The notes under the pieces: model-generated
What the model was told of the DNA's origin: nothing
Databases searched by the model: none
The model's input: only the letters and a program-made list of their open reading frames with translations
Program-made: the position numbers and the translations under genes
Source of the DNA: Ectocarpus siliculosus
Taxonomy: Eukaryota; Sar; Phaeophyceae; Ectocarpales; Ectocarpaceae
DNA length: 64,000 nt
Reading direction: 5' to 3'
NCBI GenBank assembly: GCA_000310025.1
Contig: FN649728.1
Coordinates: 3,346,804 to 3,410,803 of the forward strand
Shown here: piece by piece, positions 6,098 to 55,487 of the stretch
Layout: each line of letters opens with the position of its first letter
How positions within the stretch are numbered: the first letter of the stretch is position 1

Positions 6098-6154
<57 letters not shown>

Positions 6155-18400: not shown

Positions 18401-19965
18401 ATCCCCAGCATTATTCTCCCGGGAGAACTAATCGTACGCCAGGTGAACCTCAACAAGCAAGAAGATCGCTAAATTCTGACGGCGTAAGCCTTGTGGCGGC
18501 CACAGACAATACGAGAATCACCACCAAACACTGCCACTTTTGATTTCCAAGTCCTCCCTCGAGTCTACCAACAAGGTTGTGAGTCTTTACGCTGAAACAG
18601 GATGCCCCCAAACGTACAACCCGAAATCCAGGATGAGCTTCATCGTTGGGCATTGTTTGTACGGGGCATTCTGGCAACGCCTGATGTGGTGGGCAGAAAT
18701 GAGCAACAGTGCTCGGTGTGCTTGTCTCATGGCGGCAAGAACCGACGACCACGTAAACGCATACTCCTTATTTTGACACAAGAGGCGAATCGGTATTTTG
18801 GGGGTGACATCTGCTGGGGTTTTGTTTTGCCACCCTGCGCAGGGAGAGCCAGCGACGTGCATGTTCTTCATCAGCAGAGGCTCCGTGCGAGTGACCGTGC
18901 CCGAAACCGAGGACTGCGACGACGAATTCCCGGAGGAGACGTACATCATCTCGCTGGGCGCCGGGTCGTTCTTCGGAGAGGTGGCTCTGCTTGAGGAGGT
19001 AGGTCCATCATGTGTCGAGCGGCGACATCTCACGAGCTTCGTAACCCTAAGAGCTCTAGTGGCCTAGCTTGGAAAGCCATGTGGCTGCGGCGCGAGTTCT
19101 TTAACAAAACAGAAGCTTGGTAAGATAATGTCCGAGTCCATCACACTGCGTATCGCAACTGCACAATGCAGGAGCACGTCCGGACGGCGAACGTGAGGGC
19201 AGAGGCGTTTACCGAGTTGCAGGTCATGCACGCCGCGGATTTCAAGGCTCTCGCCGAAGTGTTCCCAGAGTTCAAGGTGCGGATATAGTGTGTGGTCGGG
19301 CGTGGATGCGCGGTTCTGTCGTTAGTTTCATGAACGTTCCGTCGGTAAATGTCTCGAATATCGGCAAGAGACAGTGGTGTGCTCAAGGATTTGCGGTTGA
19401 TGTTGATCTCGTGCACAAATAACTTGGTTCGTGGTCTCGAATGAGAGGGAGAGCTGCTGAACCGCTCCGGCCGTAAAATTTGCTGTTATACGTCTTTCCC
19501 TACCCTTACTCCCCCCGGCCCAACCCATCCGCCGCGACCCGCACAAACCAACCGCCAAAAGACGGCGGTCAAGTCGATTTCCAAGTCTCGCATGAAGGCC
19601 GGCGAAGCTCTCGGAAAGATGAAGGCACGTGGAAAGAAATTTTCCAAAGGGAACTCTCGTTCCACTCGCGGTCCAGGGCCCCGGTCGATGAAAACCATGC
19701 GAAATGCCATTGCCGCCGTTAAAGCCAATCCTCGCGCCGCGACCGGTAGAGAAACCAGAGAAAAGAAGCCCAAGATGGCAAGCTTGGTGGAACGATTGAT
19801 GAGGAAGTACAGGTGAGCCTGCCGCTAACACCGTAGTCATCGCTTATTCTGCTTGTTTCCCCCACCCTTCCCAGCAGGAACGAAGGCTTAACGAACGAAT
19901 TCCCCGAACTGAACAAGGTTGCCATCAACAACCAAACGATCTTGCTCCAGTGTTTCCATCCGTGA
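10776..19965 (+). CDS. cyclic-nucleotide-binding six-TM cation channel (CNG/HCN/EAG-type)
   Basis: Voltage-gated-like channel with a cytoplasmic cyclic-nucleotide-binding domain. Exons: 10776-11558, 11935-12067, 13010-13160, 13932-14043, 14736-14819, 15462-15541, 16023-16147, 16872-17044, 17869-18021, 18344-18442, 18843-18998, 19172-19276, 19562-19812, 19878-19965. Phase is continuous, giving about 830 aa. Residues 1-261 are Ser/Thr/Gly-rich and disordered. S1 is around TWDIVMMILIIFSSFVNPLK, S2 around VLVDFSFIFHIGLTFRTT, S3 around YLKGWFVLDVASSLPVALIA. S4 is a weak sensor (KLLRTLKLHQL, basic or His residue every third position), S5 FVFTFVLVVHFIACGYWF, then a P-loop with filter VITYGND, S6 and a C-linker ending YMRFRK. 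The cNBD (about 599-718) has GSFFGEVALL and RTANVRAEAF, keeping the phosphate-binding Glu and Arg-Thr. A basic tail follows. Two introns use GC donors (after 13160 and 17044). The ATG at 10776 (GCC before it) is the first in-frame Met; the frame is open upstream. The tail is uncertain: a good acceptor at 20226-20227 could add a further exon. Confidence 0.92.
13230..13320. repeat. (GA)n microsatellite in a channel-gene intron
   Basis: Long GA run, slightly degenerate at its right end, in the intron that follows the exon ending at 13160. It starts about 70 bp after the GC donor. Confidence 0.97.
15393..15447. repeat. (CT)n microsatellite acting as a polypyrimidine tract
   Basis: A (CT)n run with one A interruption ends 14 bp before the acceptor AG at 15460-15461 of the S5 exon. 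It is the only pyrimidine tract at that acceptor, so the microsatellite probably functions in splicing. Confidence 0.93.
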
Positions 19966-22854
19966 TTGCGCTGGCTACGGGTGTAGGTGACCGGGTGAGA
20001 AGTTTCGGTCGAAGAGAGCAAGAAACACCCGCTGTTGGTCGGCGTGCTAGACACATGAAGACCGAACCCCACCATCAGTGCCGAGCGCGGCGAGCAGCCT
20101 GCATCGTTGATAGATTGGAGCGGGGATTTGGTTTCCTCGCGGTCGTAGAGTGGATGTGGAATGACCCGAGATCACGCCCGAGGGCCGTCTCACCAACCAT
20201 TGTTTTAATCTTTCTTGGAACCTTCAGGCGGTCAAGCGCGGAAAGGAACGAAAGGGCCGCATCGGTGGCGAGATCCTTTCCTAATTCTGGCCGTGTTGGC
20301 ACGTCGCGCTGGTTAGGAGGGCAGAGCTTCAGGGAAAAGGAGCAGCGGTGAAGACCCCTCAGTTCGATAGAGTCTCCGCAAGTTTTGGTTTGACCTTACC
20401 TTTGTCCGTAGACACCAAACCTTCACACCAACAAAAAGATTCTCTTACATCGTGTCGAACAAGTGGAGAACTTTGCATAAGCCGGCACGGCATCGACGTC
20501 GTGAGAAAACAATAGTAATAACGCACACACGGAGACGACTCAGTCCTTCTCGCGATACAACCTAAGGCAAGCATCACGGAATCGAAGCTGGGGAAATCCT
20601 CCTGTATGCCCTCGTGTTGTGTCACACCAGCTTGTGAAGCGTCCACAACTACCAAGGAGCAATTTTCCTGACGTCCGTAGGACATATTTGATTCACCAAC
20701 TCCCGCCCCCTTCCCTATGTATGCCCCGTTTTCGTGGTAGCAGGTCTGTTTATGAAAGGATCGTAGCGCACGAGGCGCTGGTGTCACACGAGGCGGCCAT
20801 ACGCGTAGCGAGAGGGGGGGGGATAGCGAGGGAGGACCTTTTGGCAATGAATCATCTGTAGCAACGGCTATGGGCTCATTTGTGTTGCGGCCAGCACCTA
20901 CAAACGAGTGGCTCGTTGCGCGAATTACGGCGTTGCGGTGTGCTACCGTCACGCCGAGCCCATCGTCCTAGCAGAATATCCTTACCGATCGCTCAGCCGC
21001 CACGAACAGGAGCACCAGCATGTGATTCCTAGAATCGGTTAAGCGCGGAACCGTCGGACAGGCACCTGCAGTACAGCAACCTTCTTGAATATCGTGAGGT
21101 AGATTAAAGTAGCCCAAGCTACAGTAGATATTTGACTCCTCCGTGAGTAACCTTGATTTTGATGTGCGTTCCGCGTAGTGCTAGAGCTTCGCACCCGGCT
21201 GGGTAGCGAAGCGGTAACACTATTCTTGTGCAGTAGGACCGTTTGTTTACAACTACCTTGCTTCCTGTCAATATGTGGTGCGTGTCTCGCGTTTCGTTGA
21301 GTTTTTCGTTGAGGCAGCAGCTTCTTGTCGCTATTTAAGGGGTGAAGCACTCACCCACCTTTGATAAGCCAAATTATACACTCAACTCGATTGAGAATCA
21401 TTGGATATCTTTCACTTGTTCCCCCGGGCAGCTCCTTAGTTCTGGGTGTTTAGTTTGAGCGCAACTGAATCCTGTCCCCGTTGGCATAATGACGTGACAT
21501 TCTACTAACATCCTCCCGCACTGGTGTTCAGTACTGCGCATGGAGTAGCGCGGCACTTCGTGGACATCATGATCTGTCCAAAATGGAGTTGCAAGAAAGA
21601 AGTCCGAACTGTGGTTCGGTTTATGTAGAACAGCCCTGTGTCGCAAACTCTACCAGATGGTGCACCCACAACTCTCCGTGGTAAGTCCCATCTATGTGTG
21701 GTCCATATGTGGAAGTGTAGTCTGCACTATGATAGCAAGGTTAGTGTAGACGCAATATTTGATCAAGAGGGTACAATAGACAAATCTGAATACTACACCA
21801 ATGGCCTATTATAGTGTTTGCGGGATCTTCTCTCTTGTCTCTCCACTCTGCTGCAGAAAATGAAAACAAGTCGACGTTGCATGCATAGACTATGTGTGCA
21901 ACCAACGCGAGAAGGAAAAAGCTCACGGCCGTCCCACACCGTCGCATGTGCAGCACCGCCTTCTCGGGCAGAAATGCTGTACATTTGGCCGATGCCTACG
22001 GACTGCACAGGTTGCATTTCACTAATTCGAGTTGGCAGCAGTCAGGCCCGGATCGGGTCAATGCTCACGGTACTTGCATGATTTTCTCCCTCCTCCATAT
22101 ATTGGGTGAGATGGCCGAATGTGAAAGTACGACGAGACTGAGAATTTTTACAAGTACTGTACACTTCAAGTTCCAGGTGTGAATGTCTCAAGTGAAATTC
22201 AATACCTCACGATGATGGTGAAAGAGAGGCGCTTGTTCCTTGTGACGACAACCTGAAGAACCCGTCGTTGCGACAAGATTTTGTTGTCTGGGCTGACATC
22301 GTGAAAGTTTTCTCTACCCGTACCGCATGACTCTCCATCTCTCCATAGTGTGTGGCGCAGCTCATGCAATTTTGATTCAGGTGGTCATCCTCTTACCCGT
22401 GCATGGGACAAAGGGGTAGAGAGACATCTATGGTGTAGGGCGTCAGTCGCGTTGCGTCGGCCGCCCAATGAGAGAAACTTTGTAGCCGAGCCGAGCAGTA
22501 CGGAACGAAATCTACGATGAAATCTACGATGAAAACCTACGACAGACAATGAAATCTACGGAGAACACGACTTTCTTTGTTTCCGTAGGTCTACAGGGTC
22601 GGCGGGTGATTTCAGGCTTCAGGGATGCATCATTCAATTGTGCACGACGTGCCTTGCTTGGTGACGCCTCTTTCCTTCGACAGGCGGCTTGGGGAGGACC
22701 GGTGTTCTGACAAAAGAGCTCGTGTCATGATGCCAGGGTACTTTAGTGAGTAGCACATCTAAATCCTTGTTGCAACCCTTCTGGGAGCAGGAGGTGGGTT
22801 TGTCGCCCCGTATCGGCCTCAATGCCGTACCCGTTGGGTATTTCCAAGTCGACC
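19966..22854. other. intergenic region between channel and mosaic-protein genes
   Basis: Contains the channel 3' UTR and a possible extra terminal exon: a strong acceptor TTGGAACCTTCAG ends at 20227 and is followed by open basic frames. Beyond about 20350 I find no exon chain or domain on either strand. At 22509-22564 a short motif (a)aatctacga/gg is loosely repeated three to four times. The promoter and 5' UTR of the next gene should lie at the right end. Confidence 0.5.
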
Positions 22855-25800
22855 ATGTCCTCACCATGGTACCTGACTGCCCTGATGGCAATGTTTCTTG
22901 CAACACGGGGGGCAGCAATCGCTCCGAATCATGGCGACTTTCAACAAGCATCGCCTGAACCGCAAGTATCGGCAGGATCGCCTGGATCAACCAGCAGTTT
23001 GAAGGTATCGTGGGATACAGTCGCGGACCGGGCGGCTCCCAAGATCCTCGGGTGAGCGGTCTTGCAGCAAATAACTCTTTGTGTGACCTAGCTTTTGTTT
23101 TGGATCCCTGCTCTGGTCGCGTCCTAATTTACAATATCCTTGAGTCCAACTCTGACTGGGTATTGGATCATTGCAGCGGGACGACAGCACAGCGAGACTG
23201 TGTTGTAGTACTCTGTAGTACAGACTGCATATATGTATGCATTGTAGTCTACATGCGGTACCAAGAATGTTGATTCTTCATTATACTGCTTATTGGTGTT
23301 GATAGACCAGCCACTCGTATTATTCCTCCCCTTCCTGCTGTGGACCCTTATTGCAAGAGAGGTTTACTTCGAATCTTGTGATTGGAGCATTTGTTCAGCT
23401 TGATTTGCACGCGTTGGTGCTGGTATGCAGATACGAGCTACAATACGCCGTGGCCGGGCGTACTGGAGGCAGCGATGACACCATCGCAAGTTGGAAATCT
23501 GCGGAGGGGAACACCCACGATACCTGGGACATCACCATTCAAGTGGACGGATTTGACAGGTACAACATGTATGATGGAAGGCAGTTGGCGCGCGAGGGAA
23601 TCAACTTGGGGCAATAACAAAATGGGGTGGACATACACGATTCGAATATACTGCTGAGGTACTGCTGTGCAGGTCTTCGACATAAAGACTTGGCAAGCTG
23701 AGGTACTGCTGTACAGGTCTTCGACATACAGGCTTGGTAAGCTCAGACGAAAATCCCGTACATTGTGTAATGAGGTTTTCAGGATAAGCTACGGCCGCTG
23801 GTGTTGGAAGGACCGGTTTATCAGGGTCGCTGTCGGTTTCGATCATACACTGCTGTCACGGTCGCTATGATACGTTAGCCACCCATCGGTTGCGACGGTG
23901 TGCGAAACAATACAATACAATTATTGTAACATAGGCATACCAAACATGTTGACCTTGATGTTTCCGCGGTCCTGAGATGTGCTGGTGTCTGAGTGTGTTT
24001 CCGTCCCATCTGGGTACCAGTCTACAGTTTGACCGCGCGGCCGGGGCCACACGAAAGAACGGCAGACGATGGGTTCGATCTCATCAACATTTTTCTCGTG
24101 CAGCAATGGCCTTCATTGTGTGACATGCTGAGGCTAAAGAACATAATGATATATCGCTCGACCTATTGCACGGACACAGCGTACATGCTGCACTGGAAAA
24201 GGACTAACCCACCCGTTCGAGGTCGAGCATATCATCAACCACGATCGCTCCTTACGGATCGTGGACATATTTTTCACCGAAAATCGACAGGTCTATTGGG
24301 AGGAAGCACATGGTAGAAGACGGATGGTTCACTCTTGCGTTATCTCGGGCGTACCCCAAGCCTAGTTCACTGCCAGACCTGTGGTTGGATACGGAGCCAA
24401 TCGGGTGGAACGAAACCTGGGTGGACATGGAGGCCAAAGTTCAAAAGACCCTCAGGTGACGAAGAGCAATGGTTGCAGTCCTCCGAGGCCTACGCGTATC
24501 TTTTAGGTTTGTGCTTCTTCCTACGTTAGTCTATACAGAAGTGGTCCCGGGAGAATGCCGTTCGCCCCGTATATTGCCGGCTATTTCGACTGGATCGCAC
24601 CAGCATTACACCGGGACCACTGGTGAGGCGAGATGTTGTGAGTCTCTACATGCCAACCTCACAAGTGAATGAACCCGAACATTTCACTCTGAAGACCAAG
24701 GCTCAGGGAGTCTTCTCCGGAACGATGCGAAAAGAATATTTCACCTATGTTGTGGGAATTGTGTCTCCTGTACCAACAGGCCTCCTTCCATGTCTGTCTG
24801 TAATGTCCAACGTCAGTAGGAGAATCCCTTCGACTGGGCTCATCTATGACTTCTCTGTCATCTTGATGGCCGATGGCTGTCCTCCCTCGCTCCTCTCAGC
24901 TAACTCCCTTTTACTACCTCTCTCTGGTTCCACCAAACCTGTCCACATTGTTCTATAGGTACTATACGTCAGGGCAGCTTGCTCGCCGCAATAGAGAGCT
25001 CGTAACTCTCCATCGACTGTAGCGCAGAACCACATTGGCGTCAGCGTTTGCGGCAGCGCCGCTGTCACCCTTATCACCATAGAGTTGTTGGTCGACGTCC
25101 TCGGACTCATTGTACTCCGTCGCCATGACAAAGACTGGGACACTCTAGGACAAGTGCTTTGTGGGACACACTTGTCCTAGAGTGTCCCAGTCTTTGTCAG
25201 TACGACGTCGACCCACAACTCAATGGCGACATGGGTGACAGCGGTGCTCCCGCAAACGCTGACGTCTTTGTGGTTTTGTGCTACTACAGTTACGAACTCT
25301 CTAGTCTTATCAACAAGTTATTGTCTCAGTTTGACCAAAGTTCACCACTAATACCTGGGGGGGTAATGTGGGGCTTGTCTCTCCTGAACAGACAAGCCTC
25401 ATTTACTATCTTGTCTGAAACGTCCAACGTCAGTCGGAGAATTCCTCCGGCTGGACTCATCTATGCCTTGTCTGTCATCAGTAACGAGGAATCTCCGTTC
25501 ATGATCTTGGTGGCAGCATATCCACCCTCGTCCCTCTCAGCTCACTTCACTACCTCTCTCTGGTTCCACCAAATGTGTCATACTGTCCACGTGGTCCTAC
25601 ACGTGCCTCTACTTTCATTGTCGCTTATCTACGTGAGGACAGCTTGTTCGCCGCAAGAGTAGAGAGTTTGTATCTCTCCATCGACTGTAGCACTCTAACC
25701 CCAAACCACAATGTCGCCATTCGCGATCGATCTGTTCTCCGTCTTCGGTTTGTTCCATCTTTGTAAACTTTCAGTGCAAAATATATTCCATATGCTCGAA

Positions 25801-28800
25801 CTAGTCGGCCATGATTCAACCAACGGACGACACGAACGCCTTACCTCCCCAACCTAGCCGGACCGAGTAGGACCATCTGCTATGACGCTTTAACGTTGCC
25901 CGACTCCCTCGCGTGGCGACGAATTATCAGAGAATCTAGGCACCCCCAGTACTCCTCTTGGACGGCTGCCGTGGTGAGATGCGACGAGACTGAAGAGCGG
26001 GGCGGCAAACATTGGGCGGGAGGGTGTCGTTTCCTCGAGTACGGGGGCTTCACTTGGCACCTCCGGTAAGCTACCCAGTCAACGCTAGGACTCTGGGACG
26101 CCCGGCAGTGCCTCACGAAAAGGTCATGACCAATGCCGGCTGGCCATACCTCAGCATGATTTAACCGAGAGCTTCACCGGACCGTGATGGTCGACATGCT
26201 CTACGTAAACAGGCTGTCCCCCCCACCCGGAGATGCTTCAGCTACGCGTGAGGATTTCCCGGTGGTGACAGTGACGAAAGAAACAATCACGGCGAAATGG
26301 AGTGGAGATGGCGATCAGGTGCGACAATCGATTTCGTCCTTAAGGGACTGCTTCGAACGCCGTACGTGTGTGTCTGTGGATGGGATTTTGCACACCCTGT
26401 GGTGGAGAGGATAGAACTTGGCGCGTGCCCAAGCATCAAAGAGTTTCGTTTGGTTTCCTTGTCGGGTACTGTCATGATGCAGGTTTTTCGTGACCAGAGG
26501 CCCTACGTTGAGAGCCCGAACATGTTGAAAAGACCGCCCGCCTGTTGTGAACGTAGGAAAGGTCTTGAATTCCCGTAGCCGATATATTTGGCGCTCGGGG
26601 CCGACGATTCATCTACTCGTTCGCTGCCCAGGTTGTATCTGAACGCTTCGGCGATCATTCTCAATCTGGAGGAGAAGACAGTGCGCACGAAGAGGATTTG
26701 GGACGAACAAACCTCATCGATCCTTTCTTTTGCCAAAGAGGAAGGTGTGGAAAAAAAAAGTGCTTTCGAGATGTAGATTTTATTTTGTTGGTCTGGTTTG
26801 TGATTTCGGGTCGAGCTTGTTGTCCGTTTCGTGTACTTATGGGTAAAAATGTCGACAAATGTTCAAGCGGGTTTGCTGCCGGTTGTATGGAAACATAACT
26901 TCAAACGGTTGGCCTGCTCCACGACGGACTGTCGGAGGTGGTTTTTTCACCAACGCGGGACAAGACACCTTTTTTTCATCCTTCTATAATGTGACCCACA
27001 TCGTTCCAACAACGTCATTTTTGCTGTCTTCACAGCTGCGAACGCATGTTGGAGGGTCTAGCGGCGGCGACACCGTACCTCGTGAGGCTGAGGGCCTACA
27101 ACCGGAATGGCTTCGGTCCCTGGATGTCATCTACCACTGATGTAAGGACGATCGCGTGATCTCGCGTGGAAACGATTCGCTCGAAGCCCCTGTACCGCGG
27201 ACGGTAGATCCGCGGTCGTCGACCGAGAGCAAGGAGTTTGACTCGATTTCCCCCCTCAAGAGAAGAGCAAATGATGAAGCGGCAAGTTTGGCTGGCTTCG
27301 GCCCCAAAGCTTCGTCTATCACGTAGGTAGCTTCGGCATATATGCTCTCATCCTCCACAGACAATCAAGCGCCTCTCAACCTGCTGGACACGACCGGCCT
27401 TTACTTCGAAACTCTTGGCTCTCGCAGCGCTTTGGTAGTGTGCGAACGACCTGCACGACAGCCGTCCTCGTTGATTCTCCTAAGAACCCCGATGCTAACG
27501 CGAGCGCGTGCGTTCCGTCACGAAACAATTGAACGGTTGAGACACCCGTGCACAGCATATTCCCCCTTCGGCGTCCCTTCGCGGGTTCCTACGCACGTCG
27601 TTTCGGTGTTTGCATGGCGTAGTAGATGTCTGTGGGAACGACGGGAGGAGGAGCTGCCGGGATCAGCACAAATACCGTACCGGTGACCCCAGCTCCCAAA
27701 GCTCCGAAGCTTTCATCTTCAACCCCAACCAGCCTCACCGTGTTTGTGGACACGGCAAGCACGACCGGAGCGGCGGAGATCGAGGTGAGAAGTCAATTTC
27801 AGGAAACTGATTCCCTTGAGATTCTTAGGCGTGGCGGTACTATGAACTCCAGGAATCGCCACACGTCCCAAGTAGATCGGTCGAAAGGCCAACGAGGACG
27901 CTGAGGAGGCCCATGCCCAGTGTATGTTGAGTAAAACGGTCCAATCGAGATCCAAGCCTTTCCATGTATCACCTCGAAGAGCACCGCCGTTTGGTGTTCG
28001 GAAAGAACAAATTTGTACAATTTTCAACTCTGGTCAGCGATTTCCATAACGAACAAAGCAGTATCAATCCAAGCACAAAACGACTTCATAACGACTGCAT
28101 TGGTTGTGATTCGTGCGGCCAGCCTCCGTCGCAGATTTAGACTATTTCACGACGTGCCAGCAAGCGCCACCAACGTGCCGAATCAGGCAGCAGAGAACAC
28201 TCCCGATCGTTGCAGCATGAGGGGCTCTCGTCCGTATTTTAGCACTGACGAACTGACTGTGATGTGTCTTGTCGCTTCGGGCGATTACATCGAGGTCGAC
28301 CCAACCGGAGATGGAGGGGCACCGTCTGAAGCTTGAAAACGTGCAAAAGAGCCACCTTACAGGGAAAGAAACGCATCGTCATCTCTGACATTTCGGGTGG
28401 AATCACTAACGCTCACAGAACGCGTGAGTGGAATTGCTACGTGTCTCTGGGGCAGTTCCATTTTCCAAGGCTGCCCTGTTTTGAATCGGTTTGGCCAGCG
28501 CCACTGCTGTGGTTTCGATTCTACCGGTTTTTGCGTCTGCGGTACGCACTTCGCAGGCCTACGAGTTCGAAGTCCAGCGGCACGAGGATGACGGCTACAG
28601 CGGGGACACCACGCGGTGGATTCCGGTCTCAACACACGCCGACGACAACAGCGATGCCGCAGTGCCGCTGACAACAGCAACGGAGCTGTCGCCGTCCAGC
28701 AGCTACCGCTTCAGGGTGAGGGCCCGGCACAGCAACGGGCTTAGCCTGCTCAGCGGCGTGTCGGAGCCTTTTACCACAGGCAAGATAAACGTTGAGCACA

Positions 28801-31800
28801 TGAAAAACGGATTTAAACTTGTGCTGAAAGCAGGTTGTGAAAGGGCGACTACAGATGTTTCATGGTGGCGTTAGCGAGCTTTCGAAGCAACGGCCATATG
28901 TGTGTATTATTCGTTGCTGAGTCAACTTGAGGTTTGAAGCTTGCGATGCTTGGTGTCGCGCACAGTGTAGGCGCAACTTTGGTCCGAGGGTAGACTTGTT
29001 GTTGAATCACGATGATGGTCGGTGAAACGTGAAGAATTCGGAGCTCGTCGGCGCTACGAGGGACAGCCAATCGACGAGCACACAACGCCAATCGCCACAG
29101 GCCTGGGACTGCCAACACCCTCGCCGTTGGCGCCTGCTGTGGACGTGACATCGATAACTTCCAGTACGATGGCGGTCAAGTGGTCGTCATGGGCACAGGC
29201 AGGTAGGTGATAGAGTCGGGGAACAATAGGCAAAATTTCTTGTGTTTCGTTGTTGTTTTCGACGATGTCGTCGTCGTTATTTCTGTTGACACCCAGGCGC
29301 AAGAGCTACGCGGCAAAGACACCGCAGCACGGACACTCGCAAGAGCGGGGAATATTCGAGGTTCTCAAACGTTGAAACCTGAGACGGGTGAAATCTACGG
29401 CGTGATGTTCCCACGAGTTAGTAACAATACATTCGCTGGTGAAGTTGGGCATGTCGATGTTAGTGGCCGAGAGACCCATTCGTGGTGATGGTATACGCCC
29501 GGGGGCGACAGGAACCGTTTGACGTCTCGACCATCTCGTTGTGTGCACATATATATGAAAGTTTTGTTTGCTGCCGCATGTTGGCAGGTGTCGAGTACAG
29601 CAGTTTCGAGGCTCAGTGGGAGCGGCTCGGCAGCGGCTACTGCCAAAATGCGTCGACCATCACCCAAGATCGGTAGGCTCCCCAACAAGCCTTGCTCGTT
29701 TGGCATCGAACTCTATGCTGCCCCCTCGAAAATGAGATTCCTTGACGCAGGAAAATAATACTCTAACCATTTTCTCTCACAACCAGGGGTTTGCTCTATC
29801 GGCAATCGTAACAGTCACAGCTTGGGCACAACCACCACGCCTTGTTGCCACTCATGCGTTGTCCTAAGATTAACCCAAAAGCAGTCCTGGCGTCCACAAG
29901 TCGAGCGTAACGTTGTTTTAGGGATCAGTTTTTTCTATGTTGGTTGCACTCGCCCAAGTAGCAGATACTGGAACTACCGACAGCTACAGTAGTCACCAAA
30001 CTCTTCGCGAAAACAACCCTTCTTCGTGCCGTGGACCGGCCATCGCAAACTCCTACAAATCGCGAAGGGGGAGCCAGGAGGAGTGGCGAGCAACCGCGGA
30101 AGGGCTCGAGGCCTACTCCCAGCACCGATTCCGGGTGCGAGCCGTCAACGCGGTCGGTGCCGGCGAGTGGTCCGCAGCTAGCGATTGGGCCAGGACCAAA
30201 GGGGACCCCTCGACTACTGCCGGCGTCGACGGCTTCGAGGCGGAGGCGGTCGATTCAGGTGATACGGTTTGTTCGCAGTGGCGCGCGGTGGGTTTGAGGG
30301 GAAATGAGTACCTTTCCTCTTCTTCCCTTTGATGGGCTACGTTGGTGCTCCGGGAGAGACACGACCATGACCCTCACATAGTAGTATACGTGAGGAAGAC
30401 AGTCCAAGTACCTGAATGGGTGGAAGTCGATGGAGAATGGACAGACCAGGGGGGCGTCCCACTACGTCACGGAGATAGAATAATCGTTGAACAGAATGAG
30501 AACATCGTCACTTGGCAAAGCATCGAAACATCGAAAAATCCATGTATGGTGGTGAATCACGCCTCCCCCATATTTTTCGGATCTCCTTGTTCGTGTGGTG
30601 GCAGAAAACAGAGGATACGCTCATGGCATGCGAAAGTCCCTGACGTGTAGCAATATCTTGCAAAAAGAACGAGAAAGATAGGTCGGTGCCTATTCCTGTT
30701 CTCGGCGCTTCAGGTCTCCCTGCGCGTGATCCCTTCCCCACACCACGATGCACCCTTCATTGTTACGCCGCACCCCCAAGATATTCCGGCTTCTGTGCTG
30801 CTCTCGGTGAGCGGAGAAGGGCAAACCCCAGGCCACGCCAAAGATTTCGACTATTACCACGGCATAGGGGTCGGCGGGAAGGTCTCCCTCGACGGCCAAG
30901 GGGGAGACGGGGGTCCGGGAGCGGCCGTCATCGTGTCGAGGATTCCGGGTGTCCCTTTACCGTCGCGGTCTTCGTTTTTCTTCACTGGTAAGAGAACACC
31001 TCCTGAAAACGTTTGGTCCACGGGTGCGAGGAGTAGACGGTATACAGAGCACAATTTCCATTGGTATCGGGTTTTGCGTTGCGCTTGCGATGATCGTGAG
31101 GGGAACTCGATTACGTTCCGAATGGTGTGTGGTGGTTGTCCGAGTGGGTCGAATAGGGAGGGGACTGTTTCCGTGACGCTGTCGCTTTCCCTGTTCTCCA
31201 ACAAACATGTCCCGGTAAGATTTTTTAAATATGGGTCGAAGTGCCGGAGCATGAAGAACCCACCGTAGCGAAATTTCATCTGTCGCTGTGCGCGTTGAGC
31301 GAACGAGGTCTTGAATGCACGCGAACCTCGCAGTCCGGCGCCATGTAGCACAACACCCTACAATAATGTCCAAGCTAAGTGCTAGGAACAATGTCGTGAA
31401 ATTTTGCACGTGTCGATTCCTAGTTTTGATGGTCGAACCGGGACGAGCGCGTTACTCTGACAACACATTTTTTGCGTAGAGCTCACGATAACGGTCCGAA
31501 CGTGCCGACGGCGCGGCAACTACGTAACTTCCGTGCACGGGTACAGGCGCCCCGGAGTTGTACGCAGTCCCAAGTCATTCGGGCGTGACGAGCGTCACTC
31601 TCAAACTGTGGGGAGCAGGTGGAGGAGGCGTTTTGACACTGGTAGCGGCCGCGGGTGCCCCTGGAGACAACCAAACTTCCAACGCGACCCAAGGTTTGAC
31701 CGCAGAGAAACAATCGAAGATCCTTGCAAGGTGGAGAGAATGGGCAATGGTATCCTCAGTCCTTCCTGGGTGCAGATCAATTCGTGAACAGTTAACACCC

Positions 31801-34800
31801 CGGGACGCACTCAGTGGGATGCTGGGGATGTTTCCTTAAGAACAGAACCAAGCTTGGGGCGAAAATGCACCGAAATCTTGTTTCCATCCGTTCCGTCCGG
31901 GGCATGCCCTGGATGCATGCCACCAGGAAACTATCAACTGAACGAGAGAACTTGGAGTCAACGACGAAGAGGATGCCCCTTGAATAGGAGAAACAAGAGA
32001 GAGAGCAATGATGTAGATCAGAGCAATGTCTTCGACCCATCCGAAATTCCATACGCCCGTCAAAACCCACAAAAGGCCGCAGTAGACCTCCAGGGCTAAT
32101 GGAGAATGGTCTTCTCTTATCTTAGTGACGAACATACTTAGGCAATTGAAGAGTTCCTTAGACCGAAGAGAAACAGGGCACAGAGTAACCACGTCCCGGG
32201 CGGTGATGCTACGTGTCGCAGTAGACACAGGTACCCCAGCAGAAACGTCACGAGATGCTGAATCTTGTTTAGCAAGCACTTCGAATCCGGAGACTGGAAC
32301 CCTATCGGCTATCCTTCTCCGCGCCCCTCCTGCCAGGGAAACCTTCAAACTGCATCGCGTGTCCGGGCGTGTCATCACACGAAATCTATTAGTCGAAGTC
32401 TGAGGGTTCAAAGCCGGTTGCGGCACCACCTATTCACAAACGTCCAGTCATGCTTGCTACCTATTTTTGATGCGCAACATTCAGTTTCTCCACGCCACCA
32501 AGATTGTATCAACATGATGAATGAATCGAGTCCGTCTATCATGGCCAGTGAAAAATACTGCTGTGATCGATAACCCACACGTTCAATATAGGTTGGAACT
32601 ATTACTGGTGGTTCAAAGCGTTGGCGAATCCCGCCCCACGAGCTCAACCGCCCCTGCAAAATTACCTCGCGTACGCCTCTGCAGTGCTGGGAGGGGGTGG
32701 AGGATTCTTGCAGGCTGAAGTGAAGGTGTCTCCGGGGGAGATGCTTGAGGTCTTGGTCGGGGGTGGAGGTGGGGGAGCGCCCGGGGAAGCAGGAGGAGCA
32801 GGGGGCTTCAACGGGGGACAGCCAGGTGGGTAGACTTAATCGGAACGGATACCCTTTTTTCCTTGCAGGAAGGACACGCTCCTGCCCAACAAGGTCGTGG
32901 TCGAGCTCTCGGCACTCATACACTTGGTTCTCCGGCACGAGCTACGCTAGCAAGATTGGTGTGTTCAGGAAGCTGGGTGGGTTTGGGAAACGTGGTGGAA
33001 CCATCGATTAGTGCTTGATGTTCTCTCTGCTTACCCTTAGTGTGGAGCAGCTGTCCTACCTCTGTGACGTCGACGGTCGAAACATACGCATCACTCGTTC
33101 ATAAGAGGGAAGATCAAGTACGCAACAACCGAAACCTACCGGACACACAGACACACACAAAGGATATTGCGTTCTCTATAGAATCAGCATCATATGCCAA
33201 CCATGACACCTCAATCAACAACAGGGGGTAGTGGGGGGAGCGGAGCCGCGGGGGGTGGGGGGTCAACCTCCGTGCTGCGAAGGGACGGGAAACGCCTAGT
33301 TGCAGCAGCCGGAGGCGGTGGCGGCGCGGGAAATGCCGAAAACTGCTGCTCCGAGGGCGGCGCCGGCGGCGGGGTCAGGGGTACCGACGGAGGCAGCCCG
33401 GCCCTCGATCAGATGGTGGTCAACACGGGAGGGGGAGGGGAATGCCAGAACGGATGGTGTTCAGCATCCGAGGTATGTTTCCCGCGGTCCCCGAACCTCA
33501 ATACCTTTACGCTGGCAACGTCTTCGGATAAGGGTTAATAGGGGGCTAAGGCCTCGGTGGCGGAGAGAGAGCTCTCACGTTGGTCACGGACAGAATGCCG
33601 GTGCGGCCGGGAAAATGTCGTCGTGCCGACCAAGATATCATCGAGTAATGCACTAACGAGAGGCGACTGCCTTATACATTTGAAAGCTCCCCGCGTGAGT
33701 CGTGTCCGCAGAAACTATTTCAGAATATGTAGTGATGTATTGTACTACATACAACCTTGCCATTTTGATCGCAACGCGTGCACGACACGAGAGAAGGCGG
33801 ATGCAGTGTCGTATGAAGGCATTGAGAATTGGGTCACAACTGGGGGAAGCGGCGGAAGCACCGTCCAGGGAGGGCTCGGAGGCAAATCGGACGTCTTCGA
33901 CTGGGTGGACGGAGGTGGTGGGCGTCAAGGAGCAGTTTCATCCCCTCGTAGCGGGGAGAGTTCAATGCCAATCGTCTTCAGGGGAACCGGGTGAGAGGAC
34001 GATCATGGAACTCAATATCGAGACGCCTGGGAAACCAGTCTTTCGTTCCGTATTCGCTGCGAAACCAACGTCCTGCGGCCGAACGCAGTGGTGCGATAGG
34101 GGAGGGAGTGCTCCTTGTTCGACGTGAAAGGGTTGTTTTCCAAGTAGGACTCACGTACGTACAAGTCAGAGCCACGAACGAGTTTGCCAGCCTGTGGCGA
34201 AGGATCCTGTACTTAAGACGACAGGAGGTGGCATTCCCGTGAGCACCTACGGTTTTAGGACGCGGATTCACGCACCAGAACGAACCGCATCATCTGGAAT
34301 GACAGATGGTGTTGGTCCTACCATACCGTTGAAACCCCCTCCGTCCTTGTCCGGTAGTTTTTTGTCAGGGTAAAGTATCGGCTTCCCCACCAGTTGTGGA
34401 AAGGTCGGAATTGCTCCTTGTTTTCAAAGGTGGTTTCCGTCCCCAACCAGGGAGGCTTGATCCATGATGGCATCGGGCCTGCTCATCACCGGAACCAACA
34501 CTGGCATATCGCATAGATTCGAGTTCGGCAGGCAAGAGTAAATAAAGGAACCCAGAGGGTTGGTCCATGAAAATGCCGATCGTGCCCGGGGATGGATGCC
34601 TAACAAACCCTCGGTAACTTCTTGAAGACCCACGAAGGAGTAGACCACAGTTATTGGTGCGGTAATTCATACCAAACTGTATTTCTGGCTAGTGTTCCTA
34701 ACTTAGCTTCGTCGCGTTGCTTCTGAGGGTTCACCGCGCTTCCGCTCTTGGAGCAGTTGTCCGATCTTGGTCTCGAGTCCGCACCCAGTCTCACTCCCCA

Positions 34801-37800
34801 ACCCGCCCCGCCACACAACACCAAATTTCCTTCGTCACGTCCAGCTCCCGCCCAGCCACGCCTGGCCGCTCCTTAACCGGGGGCATAGGGGCAAACGGTG
34901 CGAGAGGGGGCGGAGGCGGCGGGGGCGGTTTCTACGGTGGCGGAGGGGGCGGATCCGGACAGCAGGGGGCGGGGGGCGGGGGTGGATCTTCTCACGCTGA
35001 CACCGGTGCGCTGGCCTTGGACCACAGGACCAACGAGTGGGGGTCGGGGGGAGAGGACGGCGTGAGGGTCGTGGAGGTTGGGGAGAGTTGGGTCGAGGTG
35101 GAATGGCGGGCGGTGGTGGGCGCCGTCGCTGGAGAGCAGCCAATGTTTTACGAGGTGTGTGCCGTGGTGGCATTGGCTAGGAGATAAAGTTGTGCGTAAG
35201 AAGCAGTTGTTCGTAGAAGGTCTCGAGTGAAAGTGTGTATCAGTGATGACTCACGCCGACAGATTAGCTTCGCTGTTGGAGTTGGGGTCTGGACATGAAG
35301 GTCAACGTCGGTACAACCCACGCCAACGGGCAACACTGCCTCGAAATCATCGAGAAAACACATGAAGACAACCAGGACAGTGCGGGTTATGGCAAGTTAT
35401 TGTAAAGGAAACATACGCACCAGGGGGAACAGCGAAAATAAAGTCCCTGTAACCTAAGAGTGAAGGTTTTTCTACTCCCTCTGGTGTGCACATTTCCTTT
35501 TCAATAACACAAATAACTTGGCTTAACCCGCATTCCTGGTTGTGTTAATGTATTTTTCTCGGTGAATTCCAGGCAACGTTGCCCGATGGTGTGGCTGTAC
35601 CGACGTTGACCTTCATATCCAGACCCCGTTGCGCGCGGTTGGTCAGAAAAATATCTATATATCGTCCAGTATAACCGCGTGAGTATCTCGATACAACACC
35701 CCCTGACGCACCTAGCGTGCGACGCAGCAAGCGTGCGTGCAATTGAGAACTCCCCACCAAACGCTCGGATTTCTTCTTGGCAGGTCGAGATTTCCGAGGG
35801 GAATGGCAATGAAGACTTTCGCCTGTCTGCAAGAGTGGACGCGTTCGACGGATACAGCCCATCCGCGATGTCGTCTTACTCCCACGACGTCGGCGATACC
35901 TCGTCCGTGTTTCTGAGTGCAGTCCTTTCGGCCCTCAGCCCGAACTCTGACTTCGATGTGCGAGTTGTTCCAATTTCGAGGTGTGTCGACGGGAAGAAAC
36001 TCTACAGTAGTAGCACGACTTCAAGGTGTCGTTTGTATGCTTAGCAGTATTGATTGACGTGGAGGGCCCACGGAGAAGGTGGCTTGGGTTCGGTTGGGGC
36101 GAGGCAGGGTTGCTTCATAGACGGGTCCTTCCTGACCCTGCGGAGGAAGAGATACATTCATCGCCGGGTTTGGGCCATGCAACCTTGTGCATATGTAAAA
36201 CGCATGACGTGCGGGGGGCTCGAGATCAAGGCGCAGGCGATAACCGTAACAATCTTGTGGAAACTCTGCAACGTCAAATCGAGAGTACAACCCTGGAAAG
36301 AAATCTTTTCCGGTTCACTAATGTCGCGACACCCACCCCGCCGTCGTTTTTCTTCGCCCTGTTGACGATATGGCGACTGCAAGATTGGGGACAGGAACTC
36401 CATCAGCCGTGGTCCGCTTCTCAACGAGTGCACTCCCCGTCAACGAATGGGAATGGGTGAGAAAAGCATATTGTTTTCATGTTGCCGTAAGTTGAGAACA
36501 AAGTATGTGAGTTTTATGCCGTTTGTCGGGTCGAACTTCCGACGAATTGTTTTCTTGAGCGCACTTGCCAAAGACCTGAGATCCCTTTTACTTTGTGACC
36601 ACGAAATCGACGGGCTGATACAGATCATCCCACGCCCCTCTTGGCCGGAGCGACATGGGCGCGGACTCACGGGTCCCGAACTCGGGAGGACTGGTTCATG
36701 GGACACGGATCTGGCGTCTATGGAGGTACCGAACAAAATCACAATAAGTCTAGGTGTTGGCTATAACTCGGCCAAGCCAGCCTTGGACCCCTCTCAAGCC
36801 GCGGGAACCATACAGAGCGAGAGGAGGAGAGATAAAAAGATCAGCGTGTCTCGGCACGGATATGTGGCACACCTACGTCCTCACGAAAAGCTTGCACCAG
36901 GAAAAAGGGGGAAAACTTGGAAATTTGTCTGTACGTCGTTGTGTGGCGCTATTGAATAAGGTGGTCGTTTACGCCGTGCATAAATATGTGGATGTTTGCG
37001 AGCCTGATCTCGCAACTTTCCGCTGAGCAGCCTCTTGCTTGCCCATCTCTGTGGCTGAAAAGCAAATAGACCGTTCCAGCGATCGTTCGCTTGGTATGTG
37101 ATCATGCTGACCTGAGTCATGATTCTGGACCTAGCATTCAAAAGCTTCAAACATACAATCACGTGAGTCTCTCAAATTCGGTGCGCACTTGCTGCATACA
37201 GGCAGAGGGGGGCGGATTATCGAATCCCCCGACAGAGATGAGGCAGGAGCTTCCCTCGCCAAGATCGGGTCACACGATGGTGGTCATCGCCGGAAAGGTA
37301 TGCCGGCGGATATTTTATTCCGCACACGCCCCCGCTGTTCAATGCCCATACTCTTCCCGCTTGAACTGCACTCAAGTTCGACATCTTCCCACACTGGTAA
37401 CTCCGCACGAAGTGTCAAAGACCATCCCGACGGCACTTCTATTACATTTTCCAGGTGTACATGTTTGGAGGTATTTCAGCGAAACCTTTGTGTTCCTCAG
37501 CGACAGTGGGTTCTACCGCCCTTGGAGATACCGCGGGAGGGGCAAACACCGACGATTGCATGGGGGGCGACTCTTTCAGGTGGGTACTGGCTCTTCTACT
37601 GAATGGTACGTCCCGTAGACGCTGCAATAGTTACTGTCGTTTACCGCTGTTGATCCATGTGAAAGCTCATTGATATTTCGTAGGCTATTTCACTCCTGCG
37701 TGCATCTTAGAGATCGGTTCCCGACGGGCGCAAAACCCTCTCCTTGTTTGTCGTATGAGAATACATTCTCGATCATCAACAGTGCAACATATTTACGCGT

Positions 37801-40800
37801 CTCTCTCGAAATCTACCAGGTCAGGTGTTTTCCCGACAGTACGAATTCGCCAAGACAGTATTAATGATGATCATGTTGTGTTGTTCCAAGTGGTCCCTAA
37901 CTTTGTCCGCTTTCGTTCAAAACCGAATCGTGTGCGAAAAAACAAGCGTCTTTCGGCCGACAACATGTGTGAGGAACTTCTGCAAGTTGGTGTTGTACGC
38001 TGCACCGCGTCTAGAACATATCGAAACTAGCTCAAGACGCGCCCTTTTCTGCGAACGTTGTATACCCTCGCGGCACGGACGGCTGATCCTCACGACGATA
38101 GCGCCGAGCTGTGGGAATTCAACCCGTCAACAAGCGTGTGGACGGAAGTCCTGGTCAATGTCGACGGAAATGCCCCCCCGGCGCGTGACGGACATACCGC
38201 TAGCGTAGTCGGCTCGAAAATGGTTGTCTTCGGTGGTAGAGGAAATGGATCCGACTCCGATGCTCAAGCCGGGAGGGGGTCGAACACCGCCTTGCTTGAA
38301 GACGAGTGGGCAATCGATCTCGACCTAAGCCAGCTCATCACCATCTCCACCAACTTTTCCACGGTGGGTGCCTGAATGCTGTATTGAGTCTTTGGGCGTG
38401 ACCGACGCCTGATGTATGACGCTGGTTTGGGGTGAGTCTGCTTCTTTGCTCCAATCAAGCAAGAACTCGCCAGCCAGACAGCTCGGGTGACATCATTATC
38501 GCGCCAGCTGGTTCATGTCAGCATCAACCCTTACTCGGTCGCCAAGTGTTGTGCCAATGATGTTCTCGTTCTCTCCCGGATGTCATCGAAAAGTTGGATA
38601 CGCGGGACAGCGACCGTTTCTTTTTGGTATCCAAGCGCTGACAGTATCAAACGAAATCCATATAGAGTGTGTGCAGCAAATACTTGTGTTGTTCATCCCT
38701 CGTTAGGTGCTTCGCGTGAATCGTGTTGTTGTTGCCGCTGTTGTGTTCATATTGTTGCTACCGTTTCTGGTGATCAGACCAACCCGTTCAGCCGTCACCA
38801 CATAGTCTACATGTTCGACGCGACAAAATCAAAGACCCGCGGTCTTCCTCGTCTACGCTCGCTCTTCGCCTTTGACACCCCAACACGAATAACACCCCAC
38901 CAGAACATCCGTGAGGGCGGCCAGATCTTCATCCCTCTCGTCGTGGAGCAGACAGAAGCGCAGCGGGCCGAAGCAGACGTGGACATGTGCGTCACTGACT
39001 TGTCAGTTGCCGTAGAGATCGATCACGACTGCATCCAACAGCTTCAGCTGACGCTCTACGGCCCCGGACCACCCCCGGGAGACACGAGCCCGCTTGGAGA
39101 CGTGTCGAGAGCTGAGCCGGCCGTGCTAGTCCTTGGCGGTGGCATCTCAGACTGTGCGTCCGACGTCGACCTGTTTGGGGATGGAAACGACGGCGCGGCT
39201 GGCGACGCTTCCTATGGAGGGTGCGTGGATGGAATGGACGTGTCCTTCGAAGATTCTGCGGAGAGCGGCGTGTGGGAGGGCTGCAACAACAGGAGGTACG
39301 CACGCGCCGGCGACGGTGTCAGGTACCTTACCGTTGCGACCTCGTCGATATCAGCGATATACGTTCTGGCACGACACGCCGGAACCATGCACGAGGTCCA
39401 CACGACTAAGCCAGAGAGACTTTGCGATTTTCCGGCCACGCGTTTTGAGTCTATGTACGTGGATTCTTCGTCGCCCCTGCTTCTTTAGCATGGTTCGCAG
39501 TCCCCTTCACGCCTGTGATATAGCCTGAAGGTTGGAAACGCAGGTTAACAACCTATGACTCGAAAACCACGAGCCTCGTGTGGGGACCCACTTTCCTCAA
39601 TCGCTTACTCTACGGAAACGCCGCTGTGGAGATGAACACGTGCACCGTGAGAAGGAAATTTTCAGTACCCTCCATTTACTGTACACCAATCGTGCAGCCC
39701 GCTCAGGGGGACATTCAAGGCCGCAGATCGGTTGTTGGTTGGTCGGTTCCTCCGCATGCCGGCCGAAGGGGAATGGACTCTTGGCGTGCTTGACAACGCG
39801 GTCGACGGAAGCAACGGGACCGTGACCCGCTGGTCTCTCGACGTCGAGATTCGCCCGTGCGATTGGCGATCGGCACTCCGGTCAGTTTCAGCGGTGTAGA
39901 TGCGTGGTGTAGTACGCCGCTGTAGGTGTTGACTGACAGCGTACAAGCTCTTCGTACAAAGAGGTTGATGGCTGCTAAAACGACGACTTTGATGTTTGGC
40001 CAACGTTTGAAAGTATGTATTGTGAAGAGAGAACGCGTATGATGCATGTATGAAAAAAGCGCTCCCAGCAGTACAGGAGTAGACATCTTACCGTCGCACA
40101 CGCCGATCTAACGATAGTGCTTGGCGCGCCCAATGGGCCCATCCGCAGTAGTGAAGGCGGAAATTCGTGCGTGCATCGACAGCAAGAATTCCTCTGCTAC
40201 TGATTACCCAGGAGCTCCGGCACCCGACGGCCTCCCTGTGCGACCGTTTCGCGTGTTTGCCCGCCTCCGCAGGTGGATCAACGTTTCCGGCGATGCGAGG
40301 CCTCCCGCACGGGCAAGGCACACAGCGGCCGTCGTCGACGGAGGCCGTTTCGTCTCGGGAGGCACGGGGAGTTTCGGGGCGCTGTCGGACCTCTGGCGAC
40401 GCGGAGAGGCCTCTTCAGAGTGGATGATCCTCGCTGAAGGCCCCGGTGTTCCCTTGGCATCCACTGGCCCTTACAACCCTCACGGGGCGAGCATCATGGT
40501 GTCTCCCTGGGGGATGCTTTCGATCGGGGGCATGCTGCCGGGACGTGGGGTGGAGTCAGCGACGGGCGTGTGGGTTTTGGACCCCGTGTCCAAACGTTGG
40601 CACTCCGTTGATGGCGATGGCGGGGTCGACGCGTCGTCGCCGGTGGGCAGGCAAGACGACAATCCGCCTTTTCTTTTCTGTTGAACACTGTTCAAGAGGC
40701 TTGCTTTACCCGCTAGAGAGAGAAGCTACTTTGTCGATGATAATACTAGTGTGAAGACTGCGAGACGAGGGGTTCGGGTGTGGGCCATCTCACTTGAGTT

Positions 40801-41510
40801 GGGACGTACCGGCGACGTACGGTAGGCTGGGATATAGGCTACCGGTTTGCCTCTCATAGTGAGGGACGGAATGGTAACCATGGCCACCCCTTGCCGGGCT
40901 GGTGTTGCGAAAAAGGGATGGCCCTGCCCAAAACGTCCTGCACGCAATACTGGTTGAATCGCAAAGCGGACGAGGTTATTCTCGCAGCATCATCTGGAGA
41001 AAGATGGCAAAAGGGCCTGAAGTACGACACAACAAACAAAAAGCATGTTATTAAGTCAAAGGTTGCTGGGTGTTAACCGCTTGTACTGCGTTGTCCCCCG
41101 CAACTAGGTATTCCTCCTCCGTGGCGATGGTGAAGACCCTGCCAGGTAGCTCGACTAATGACAACACACACGGGCTGTTGATACTCTTCGGGGGAAAGGA
41201 CGATTGGCGGAGATTGGATGACCTTTGGAGACTTAACCTTCGCTCCGTCCACGTGACTACGTCCGCGACGGCCTCGAGCAGCAACGGCCTGCAGGCCACG
41301 CCAAGGCCGCACACGCACGGCAGCTGGTCCCTGGCTGAGCTGGGAAGGGACGCTCGCTGTGCGCATGCCCTGGTTGCAGGCACCGCAAACGACACGTGGC
41401 ATTCTTCGTGCGGAGACGGGGCCAATTGGGGGGCGAGCGGGGAGGACGGCTGCACGATGGCCGCGGTGTTGGAGGCGGCATGGTGTCTCGGAGAGTATCA
41501 GAGCGTCTGA
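22855..41510 (+). CDS. secreted mosaic protein: FN3 / glycine-rich / FN3 / Kelch / P-like / Kelch
   Basis: Large predicted extracellular or cell-surface protein, about 1,706 aa; function unknown. Exons: 22855-23051, 23431-23559, 24291-24455, 24539-24622, 26213-26318, 26632-26744, 27036-27141, 27626-27784, 28557-28779, 29101-29202, 29588-29672, 30068-30266, 30714-30987, 31547-31627, 32685-32825, 33225-33472, 33827-33914, 34856-35154, 35784-35980, 36384-36456, 37202-37297, 37455-37579, 38102-38363, 38778-39295, 39544-39639, 39707-39880, 40273-40650, 41108-41510. All junctions keep phase. The start gives a signal peptide (MSSPWYLTALMAMFLATRG...). FN3 modules lie at about residues 33-110, 195-300, 313-427, 428-545 and 905-1020 (e.g. 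SYRFRVRARHSNGLS). The glycine-rich domain is about 560-905, Kelch motifs (PRSGHTMVVIAGKVYMFGG) about 1025-1180, a P/Homo-B-like domain (GEWTLGVLDNAVDGSNG) about 1184-1446, and more Kelch repeats run to the stop. Least sure: exons 2-6, 12 (could start at 29990) and 17, and the GC donor after 31627. Two adjacent genes cannot be fully excluded. Confidence 0.83.
23653..23740. repeat. 44-bp direct tandem duplication
   Basis: Two adjacent 44-bp units (23653-23696 and 23697-23740), each starting gctgaggtactgctgt and differing at about four positions. They lie in the intron after the second exon of the mosaic-protein gene. Confidence 0.92.
24760..25755. repeat. composite direct/inverted repeat with a 30-bp perfect palindrome
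   Basis: Within one intron (24623-26212) of the mosaic-protein gene. Segment R1 (about 24760-25125) recurs in direct orientation as R2 (about 25375-25745), sharing for example gtccaacgtcagt, ctacctctctctggttccac and ctctccatcgactgtagc. Between them, 25199-25305 is a diverged inverted copy of about 24985-25125. At the centre 25127-25156 and 25169-25198 form a perfect 30-bp inverted repeat around a 12-nt loop. No long ORF is present. It looks like a non-autonomous fold-back element, or two nested or rearranged copies of one; no family is recognised. Confidence 0.85.
30714..35154 (+). other. glycine-rich domain block of the mosaic protein
   Basis: Exons 30714-30987 to 34856-35154 encode repeated Gly blocks: TLKLWGAGGG, GGGGGFLQAEVKVSPGEML followed by LVGGGGGG, then GGGGSTSVLRRDGKRLVAAA with GGGGG, and GFYGGGGGGSGQQGAGGGGG. 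The order (vWGAGGG, then a strand with V.PGE.L.V.VGGGG, then a vlR.dg..L..aaGGGGG strand) matches the glycine-rich beta domain found in many algal and protist secreted proteins and, more remotely, in ALK-type receptors. The last exon runs directly into an FN3 module (SWVEVEWRAVVG). Confidence 0.8.
35284..35627. repeat. intronic inverted repeat, arms about 57-59 bp
   Basis: Arms 35284-35342 and 35571-35627 are inverted copies at roughly 85 % identity, sharing the 20-mer gtaccgacgttgaccttcat (read on the minus strand for the left arm). About 230 bp lies between them. Both arms are inside the intron 35155-35783 and could form a long hairpin in the pre-mRNA. Both encode a CTDVDLH-like peptide, but neither fits the exon chain in phase. 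Confidence 0.85.
37202..41510 (+). other. Kelch and P-like domain block of the mosaic protein
   Basis: Kelch blades are recognised by the sequence P-x-x-R-x-G/R-H-t ... GG followed by a Trp-containing strand: LPSPRSGHTMVVIAGK/VYMFGG, ELWEFNPSTSVWTEV then PPARDGHTASVVGSKMVVFG, PPARARHTAAVVDGGRFVSG, and RYSSSVAMV ... LLILFGG. Exons 38778-39295, 39544-39639 and 39707-39880 interrupt the blades with a jelly-roll-like unit ending GEWTLGVLDNAVDGSNGTVT, the pattern of the proprotein-convertase P (Homo B) domain, rich in acidic residues. The protein ends with about 50 Cys/Ala/Trp-containing residues after the last blade and has no obvious membrane anchor. Confidence 0.75.
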
Positions 41511-50078: not shown

Positions 50079-50111
<33 letters not shown>

Positions 50112-53100: not shown

Positions 53101-53357
53101 GAAAAAAACCCCCCCCTTTTCCCCCCAAAAACTTTACGGCCCGGGGGGGGGGGAAACCCCCCCCGGGGGACCCTGAACCCCCCCCTTAAAAATTTTCCCC
53201 CCGGGTTTGGCCCCCCGAAAAAAAAAAGAGGGCGCCAAAACTCNNNNNNNNNNNNNNNNNNNNNNNNNNNNNNNNNNNNNNNNNNNNNNNNNNNNNNNNN
53301 NNNNNNNNNNNNNNNNNNNNNNNNNNNNNNNNNNNNNNNNNNNGAAGGGGGAGGGAA

Positions 53358-53395
<38 letters not shown>

Positions 53396-55451: not shown

Positions 55452-55487
<36 letters not shown>

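What the first reader, a model, noticed from the sequence alone, without database searches (positions are those of the whole stretch)
22855..41510. Mosaic secreted protein combining FN3, glycine-rich, Kelch and P-like domains
The exon chain keeps phase over 28 exons and gives a signal peptide, FN3 modules, a glycine-rich beta domain, another FN3, Kelch blades, a convertase-type P domain set between the blades, and more Kelch blades. I know each module family but not this combination. It suggests an extracellular adhesion or recognition molecule, possibly of the cell wall or gamete surface. The combination and role are inference.
Basis: partly seen in the sequence, partly recalled or inferred. 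Interest (0 to 1): 0.75.

Follow-up and report, generated by a model that had tools for sequence, protein, structure and literature searches.

The report
Mosaic secreted-looking protein, brown-alga-like genome
A 19-kb stretch of a probably brown-algal genome encodes, exon by exon, modules known from cell-surface proteins, with a P domain set inside a Kelch propeller; the modules are real, but two of the joins that would make them one gene are not proven.

Summary
The coding exons are real. A + strand exon chain, 22855-41510, can be built (26 exons, 1712 aa), but with forced ends and hints. Pfam confirms FN3 (83.5 bits), a Kelch propeller (123.1 bits) and a proprotein-convertase P domain (29.4 bits, cut-off 21; mostly its second half). 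With the P exons left out, one Kelch match runs across the junction, so the P domain sits inside the propeller, by eye in blade 2. No peptidase domain accompanies it. The glycine-rich stretch (8.9 bits, cut-off 24.5) and the FN3 after it (15.5, cut-off 25) are below cut-off. The signal peptide rests on hydropathy. Two joins are weak: 27.14-27.63 kb, where the free gene finder starts the gene, so that the signal-peptide exon may belong elsewhere; and 35.98-37.20 kb, where no well-scored bridge was found. Searches with aa 1-808 and with the Kelch-P part matched only this locus in the genome. Secretion and adhesion or recognition are inference; nothing points to gametes. It is a new arrangement of known modules, of moderate interest.

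The parts
22855..23051 (+). exon 1: ATG, putative signal peptide (about aa 1-23), start of FN3-1
   Evidence: model; 19-residue hydropathy 1.31, second highest of the protein after a glycine-rich window of 1.32; codon score -0.2; no signal-peptide predictor available
23431..23568 (+). exon 2: rest of FN3-1
   Evidence: fn3 16.8 bits on exons 1-2 with sequence read past the donor, cut-off 25 not met
24291..24455 (+). exon 3 (uncertain; acceptor -2.1; no family)
26213..27141 (+). exons 4-6 (26213-26318, 26632-26744, 27036-27141): FN3-2; exon 5 uncertain
   Evidence: fn3 21.6 bits with sequence read past the last donor, profile 48-81 of 84 only, cut-off not met alone
27626..28779 (+). exons 7-8 (27626-27784, 28557-28779): FN3-3; exon 7 is the first exon in the free gene prediction and has no well-scored acceptor; GC donor after exon 8
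   Evidence: fn3 26.7 bits
29101..30287 (+). exons 9-11 (29101-29202, 29588-29672, 30068-30287): FN3-4 and linker
   Evidence: fn3 42.7 bits, 6.5e-11
30714..30987 (+). exon 12: linker without family
   Evidence: 0 families
31547..35154 (+). exons 13-17 (31547-31693, 32685-32825, 33225-33472, 33797-33990, 34845-35154): glycine-rich domain; end of exon 17 begins FN3-5
   Evidence: ALK_LTK_GRD 8.9 bits, cut-off 24.5 not met
35670..35980 (+). exon 18: FN3-5; start may instead be 35784 (stronger acceptor, 4.1 against 1.9)
   Evidence: fn3 15.5 bits over exons 17-18 with start 35784, cut-off 25 not met
36651..36693 (+). exon 19: doubtful bridge that keeps phase
   Evidence: donor -3.3, acceptor -2.8
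37202..38363 (+). exons 20-22 (37202-37297, 37455-37579, 38102-38363): Kelch blade 1 and first part of blade 2
38904..39880 (+). exons 23-24 (38904-39322, 39707-39880): P domain, inserted in blade 2
   Evidence: P_proprotein 29.4 bits, 8.8e-07, best stretch profile 52-85 of 86; exon 23 alone no match
40273..41510 (+). exons 25-26 (40273-40650, 41108-41510): end of blade 2, blades 3-5, partial blade 6, stop codon
   Evidence: GC donor after exon 25

Best explanation
One gene encodes a large soluble secreted protein: signal peptide, a stalk of about four FN3 modules, a glycine-rich beta domain, a fifth FN3, and a C-terminal Kelch propeller that carries a P-type jelly roll in a loop of its second blade. 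Shown: the FN3, Kelch and P modules, their order on one strand, and the continuity of the propeller across the P insertion. Inferred: secretion, one transcript, the glycine-rich and fifth FN3 folds, and function. Most likely the FN3 and glycine-rich parts are a spacer or assembly stalk in the cell wall or at the surface, and the propeller with its P jelly roll is the head that binds a wall polysaccharide or another surface protein. There is no serine-protease domain in the chain, so the P domain would act as a binding or stabilising module.
For: Pfam hits in order. Kelch_KLHDC2 123.1 bits with its best stretch 71-297 running across the place where the P domain was left out, against 114.2 bits in a longer protein with it in place. 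No Peptidase_S8 listed for the model proteins. Ten of 21 cysteines lie in the P exons (6) and the last exon (4), compatible with disulphides outside the cell. No 19-residue window above hydropathy 1.32, so no evident membrane helix. The free gene finder put FN3-3 to the last Kelch exon into one gene.
Against: The free gene finder started at 27626, without the signal-peptide exon and FN3-1 and -2, and exon 7 has no acceptor of positive score. No bridge with both splice scores at or above 0 was found for 35.98-37.20 kb; relaxed ones are weak, the best 36429-36456, and the direct in-phase splice from 35957 has a donor of -0.6 and cuts the last FN3. That test is weak itself, since 12 of 25 acceptors of the chain score below 0. 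Exon 1 has no coding score. The P match is mostly its second half. No relative was found to test conservation.
Confidence: 0.45

Rival explanations
1. More than one gene on the same strand: an FN3 plus glycine-rich gene ending near 36.04 kb and a Kelch gene with an inserted P domain starting between 36.4 and 37.2 kb; or, besides, a gene start at 27626 so that exons 1-6 belong to something else.
For: Free gene start at 27626; no well-scored bridge; exon 18 can run on to a stop at 36044; an alternative first exon 36370-36456 joins exon 20 in phase with donor 2.1 and positive codon score.
Against: The extension to 36044 scores as non-coding (-5.3) and the alternative first exon is less hydrophobic than exon 1 (1.2 against 1.72 in 12-residue windows), although a P domain with six cysteines suggests secretion; the two genes would lie 326 bases apart. 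The free run joined FN3 and Kelch parts in one gene. Exon 6 and exon 7 both carry FN3 pieces.
Confidence: 0.43
2. An intracellular or ciliary protein with Kelch and FN3-like folds, similar in build to the Kelch/Ig N-terminus of the third outer-arm dynein heavy chain.
For: The joined propeller matches the Chlamydomonas alpha heavy chain (7kzm_A, E 5.6e-8); of 15 listed PDB sequences it is the only one with a stretch passing the threshold by itself. A table in PMC12338079 on such propeller-bearing dyneins names an Ectocarpus entry (passages read, table heading cut).
Against: Whole-sequence scores are better for KLHDC3 (9.8e-18), LZTR1 (1.9e-11) and a thiocyanate-forming protein (8.1e-9); no dynein motor listed for the model; the order of modules differs; P and glycine-rich parts are not expected.
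Confidence: 0.07
3. A decayed gene: coding once, now with broken exon joins.
For: Weak splice sites and a missing bridge.
Against: The Pfam-supported exons are open; codon scores of exons 20-26 are all positive, though from a table trained on this locus.
Confidence: 0.05

Closest known systems
Kelch propellers of the KLHDC/LZTR1/attractin kind (Pfam PF24681, PF24981)
   Same: Same repeat; best family and PDB matches
   Different: I recall none with a P domain inside a blade (not searched in a eukaryotic collection); attractin is a larger protein with EGF and CUB modules (recalled)
P domain of furin/kexin-type proprotein convertases (PF01483)
   Same: Profile above cut-off, best in the second half
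   Different: No subtilisin-type catalytic domain; lies in a propeller; first half fits the profile poorly
ALK/LTK glycine-rich domain (PF12810) and bacterial or phage glycine-rich sandwiches (recalled)
   Same: Short beta-like pieces between glycine runs, by eye
   Different: 8.9 bits against a cut-off of 24.5; no kinase
Galactose oxidase (jelly roll, Kelch propeller, Ig-like domain; recalled)
   Same: Similar kinds of fold in one chain
   Different: No oxidase-specific family listed; the jelly roll is inside the propeller

Membership tests
Proprotein convertase (furin/kexin) | P domain | tested here: met
   29.4 bits, cut-off 21, best stretch profile 52-85 of 86
Proprotein convertase (furin/kexin) | Subtilisin-type catalytic domain (PF00082) before the P domain | tested here: not met
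   not listed for the model proteins; 8 S8 matches in the genome, none on contig C3
Kelch beta-propeller protein | Kelch repeats above cut-off | tested here: met
   PF24681 123.1 bits (cut-off 50), Kelch_1 56.5 bits (cut-off 20.1)
FN3-containing protein | FN3 above cut-off | tested here: met
   83.5 bits, 4 stretches at E up to 10, in the first 538 aa; singly 2 of 4 reach 25 bits; FN3-5 15.5 bits, not met
ALK/LTK glycine-rich domain | PF12810 above cut-off | tested here: not met
   8.9 bits against 24.5
Secreted protein | N-terminal signal peptide | tested here: inconclusive
   hydropathy only; exon 1 not in the free gene prediction
Outer-arm dynein alpha-type heavy chain | Dynein motor domain after the propeller and Ig folds | tested here: not met
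   no motor domain listed

The most novel reading that the evidence does not exclude
A single secreted protein of a brown-alga-type genome in which a convertase-type P jelly roll is built into a loop of a Kelch propeller that crowns an FN3 and glycine-rich stalk: a wall or surface recognition protein of an undescribed architecture.
Probability: 0.4. Interest if true: 0.5.

Novelty: new variant of a known kind. Interest (0 to 1): 0.38.

Why it matters
Brown algae became multicellular apart from animals and plants, and few of their wall and adhesion proteins are known (general knowledge). A protein that joins FN3 and Kelch modules with a P domain without its protease would be a concrete candidate for such work, and a case of a P domain reused as a binding or structural module. 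The Kelch-P part would keep that interest even if it is a gene of its own.

Tried and rejected
Rejected: that the P domain marks a protease (no S8 domain listed); that the protein is a dynein heavy chain (no motor listed). Near copies in the genome: searches with aa 1-808, with a 618-aa Kelch-P part and with the P domain matched only this locus, apart from one match at E 3.1; exons 16-19 were not searched, and such searches score only the best candidates. A family search with PF01483 found nothing in the genome, not even this domain, which an intron splits, so it says nothing about other P domains; PF12810 rang nowhere; the FN3 family search gave 15 matches, none on C3, so it missed this gene's own FN3s. 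Twenty stretches of the genome were fetched: 15 of 16 other Kelch places and 5 of 12 FN3 places, as grouped by eye. tblastn with exon 23 gave 0 matches there and with exon 24 two at chance level (E 0.15 and 0.65). No relatives in the prokaryote and viral collections, in scans that use short peptide patterns. PDB matches of the P part (E 1 and above) and the glycine-rich part (E 1 and above) were taken as chance or composition. NCBIfam gave nothing; PHROGs one match of 17.5 bits without function, probably by composition. HMG-box search for a hint of the sex-determining region: 11 matches, none on C3, which decides nothing. A first forced run with a wrong gene-start cost gave 67-70 mostly tiny genes per setting and was dropped, except that it showed the FN3 piece at 27046. 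Papers: searches found none; some gave listings (12 of 12, 10 of 149, 8 of 49, 5 of 5); passages of one paper, PMC12338079, were seen.

Full report
What is there. The window lies in a 189-Mb genome of 492 contigs, at C3:3346804-3410803. No call names the organism. The window's only run of N is at 53244-53343, outside the gene.

Gene model. From 16 peptides picked by eye I trained a simple codon and splice-site gene finder. Run freely on 20-44 kb it returned one gene on the + strand, 17 exons, 27626-41510, in which FN3-5 is joined to the first Kelch exon by a direct splice 35957-37202. Run freely on the whole window with the later codon table it gave an 18-exon gene over the same span and placed exon 2 in a separate 4-exon gene beginning at 17211. 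Forced to run from the ATG at 22855 to the stop at 41510, with hints from peptides picked by eye, it gave 26 exons and 1712 aa. So the part 22855-27141 is attached only by force. Two introns begin with GC in an otherwise strong donor (after exons 8 and 25). Control: 169.9 for the real stretch against 8.8 reversed, 0 on the other strand and 0-5.0 in five local shuffles, with the caveat that the codon table came from this locus.

Modules. FN3: 83.5 bits over four stretches (E up to 10) in the first 538 aa; singly 16.8, 21.6, 26.7 and 42.7 bits (the first two with sequence read past the donor), so 2 of 4 pass the cut-off of 25 alone. Glycine-rich part: ALK_LTK_GRD at 8.9 bits, not met. FN3 after it: 15.5 bits over exons 17-18, not met. 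P domain: 23.1 bits in the whole first model and 29.4 bits as the 197-aa part, cut-off 21; the best stretch covers only profile positions 52-85 of 86, and exon 23 alone gives no match, so the first half rests on a weak second stretch and on reading by eye. By eye the P domain enters between the third and fourth strand of blade 2 (DEWAIDLDL before, RWINVSGD after). Blades 1 to 5 are complete by eye and blade 6 is partial. The introns before and after the P exons have phases 0 and 2, so these exons are not a symmetric cassette.

Is it one gene? Across 31.7-32.7 kb the glycine-rich pattern continues, and the sub-threshold glycine-domain match spans it. Across 35.15-35.78 kb the sub-threshold FN3 match spans the intron. 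Two other joins are weaker. Exon 7 (27626) has no acceptor of positive score and is where free prediction starts. Exon 18 ends at 35980 in phase 2 while exon 20 begins at 37202 in phase 0, and no bridging exon with both splice scores at or above 0 exists; relaxed candidates are weak. The splice matrices are generic and 12 of 25 acceptors of the chain fall below 0, among them some within Kelch and glycine-rich parts, so the missing bridge counts little by itself. Parts for two genes exist too: an extension of exon 18 to a stop at 36044, which scores as non-coding (-5.3), and a first exon 36370-36456 for a separate Kelch gene. I put one gene over the whole span at about one half.

How it may work. 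Without a peptidase domain the P module cannot be serving a convertase in the same chain. P domains share a jelly-roll fold with galactose-binding-like modules (recalled), and propellers bind partners on their faces (recalled), so a binding head on an FN3 stalk is the most economical reading. Ten of 21 cysteines lie in the P exons and the last exon, which fits secretion. No membrane helix is apparent in the hydropathy scan. The target, a wall polysaccharide or a surface protein, is a guess; gametes are not indicated by any result.

Relatives. Searches with aa 1-808 and with the Kelch-P part match only this locus in the genome, and the P domain only itself apart from one match at E 3.1; exons 16-19 were not searched. 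The genome has other Kelch and FN3 places: 40 of the 42 Kelch matches lie elsewhere, and all 15 FN3 matches, the search having missed this gene's own FN3s. In 20 stretches chosen from these no P-like exon was found by tblastn beyond two chance-level matches. No eukaryotic genome or protein collection was at hand, so the statement that the architecture is new is untested there. Searches of papers listed none on such a protein (two searches showed only 10 of 149 and 8 of 49).

Verdict. A real and unusual set of known modules on one strand, with two unproven joins; of interest as a candidate wall or surface protein, not a new kind of system.

Noticed in passing
window 24795-25479 and 25019-25284: In the model's third intron, a 68-nt direct repeat (87%) and an inverted repeat with 81-nt arms (85%), perhaps a small mobile element.
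   Followed up: no
window 23653-23743: Two tandem copies of a 44-nt unit in the model's second intron.
   Followed up: no
window 3170-8208, - strand: A predicted 6-exon gene encodes an acyl transferase domain (Acyl_transf_1, 75.7 bits), FabD-like by recall.
   Followed up: partly
window 17211-23617, + strand: The free gene finder joined exons with a cyclic-nucleotide-binding-like peptide (GSFFGEVALL, by recall) to exon 2 of this gene; the upstream part gave no Pfam match, so the 5' neighbour is unresolved.
   Followed up: partly
window 48566-63992, - strand: A predicted 15-exon gene for a protein rich in simple repeats, whose span includes the assembly gap at 53244-53343.
   Followed up: no
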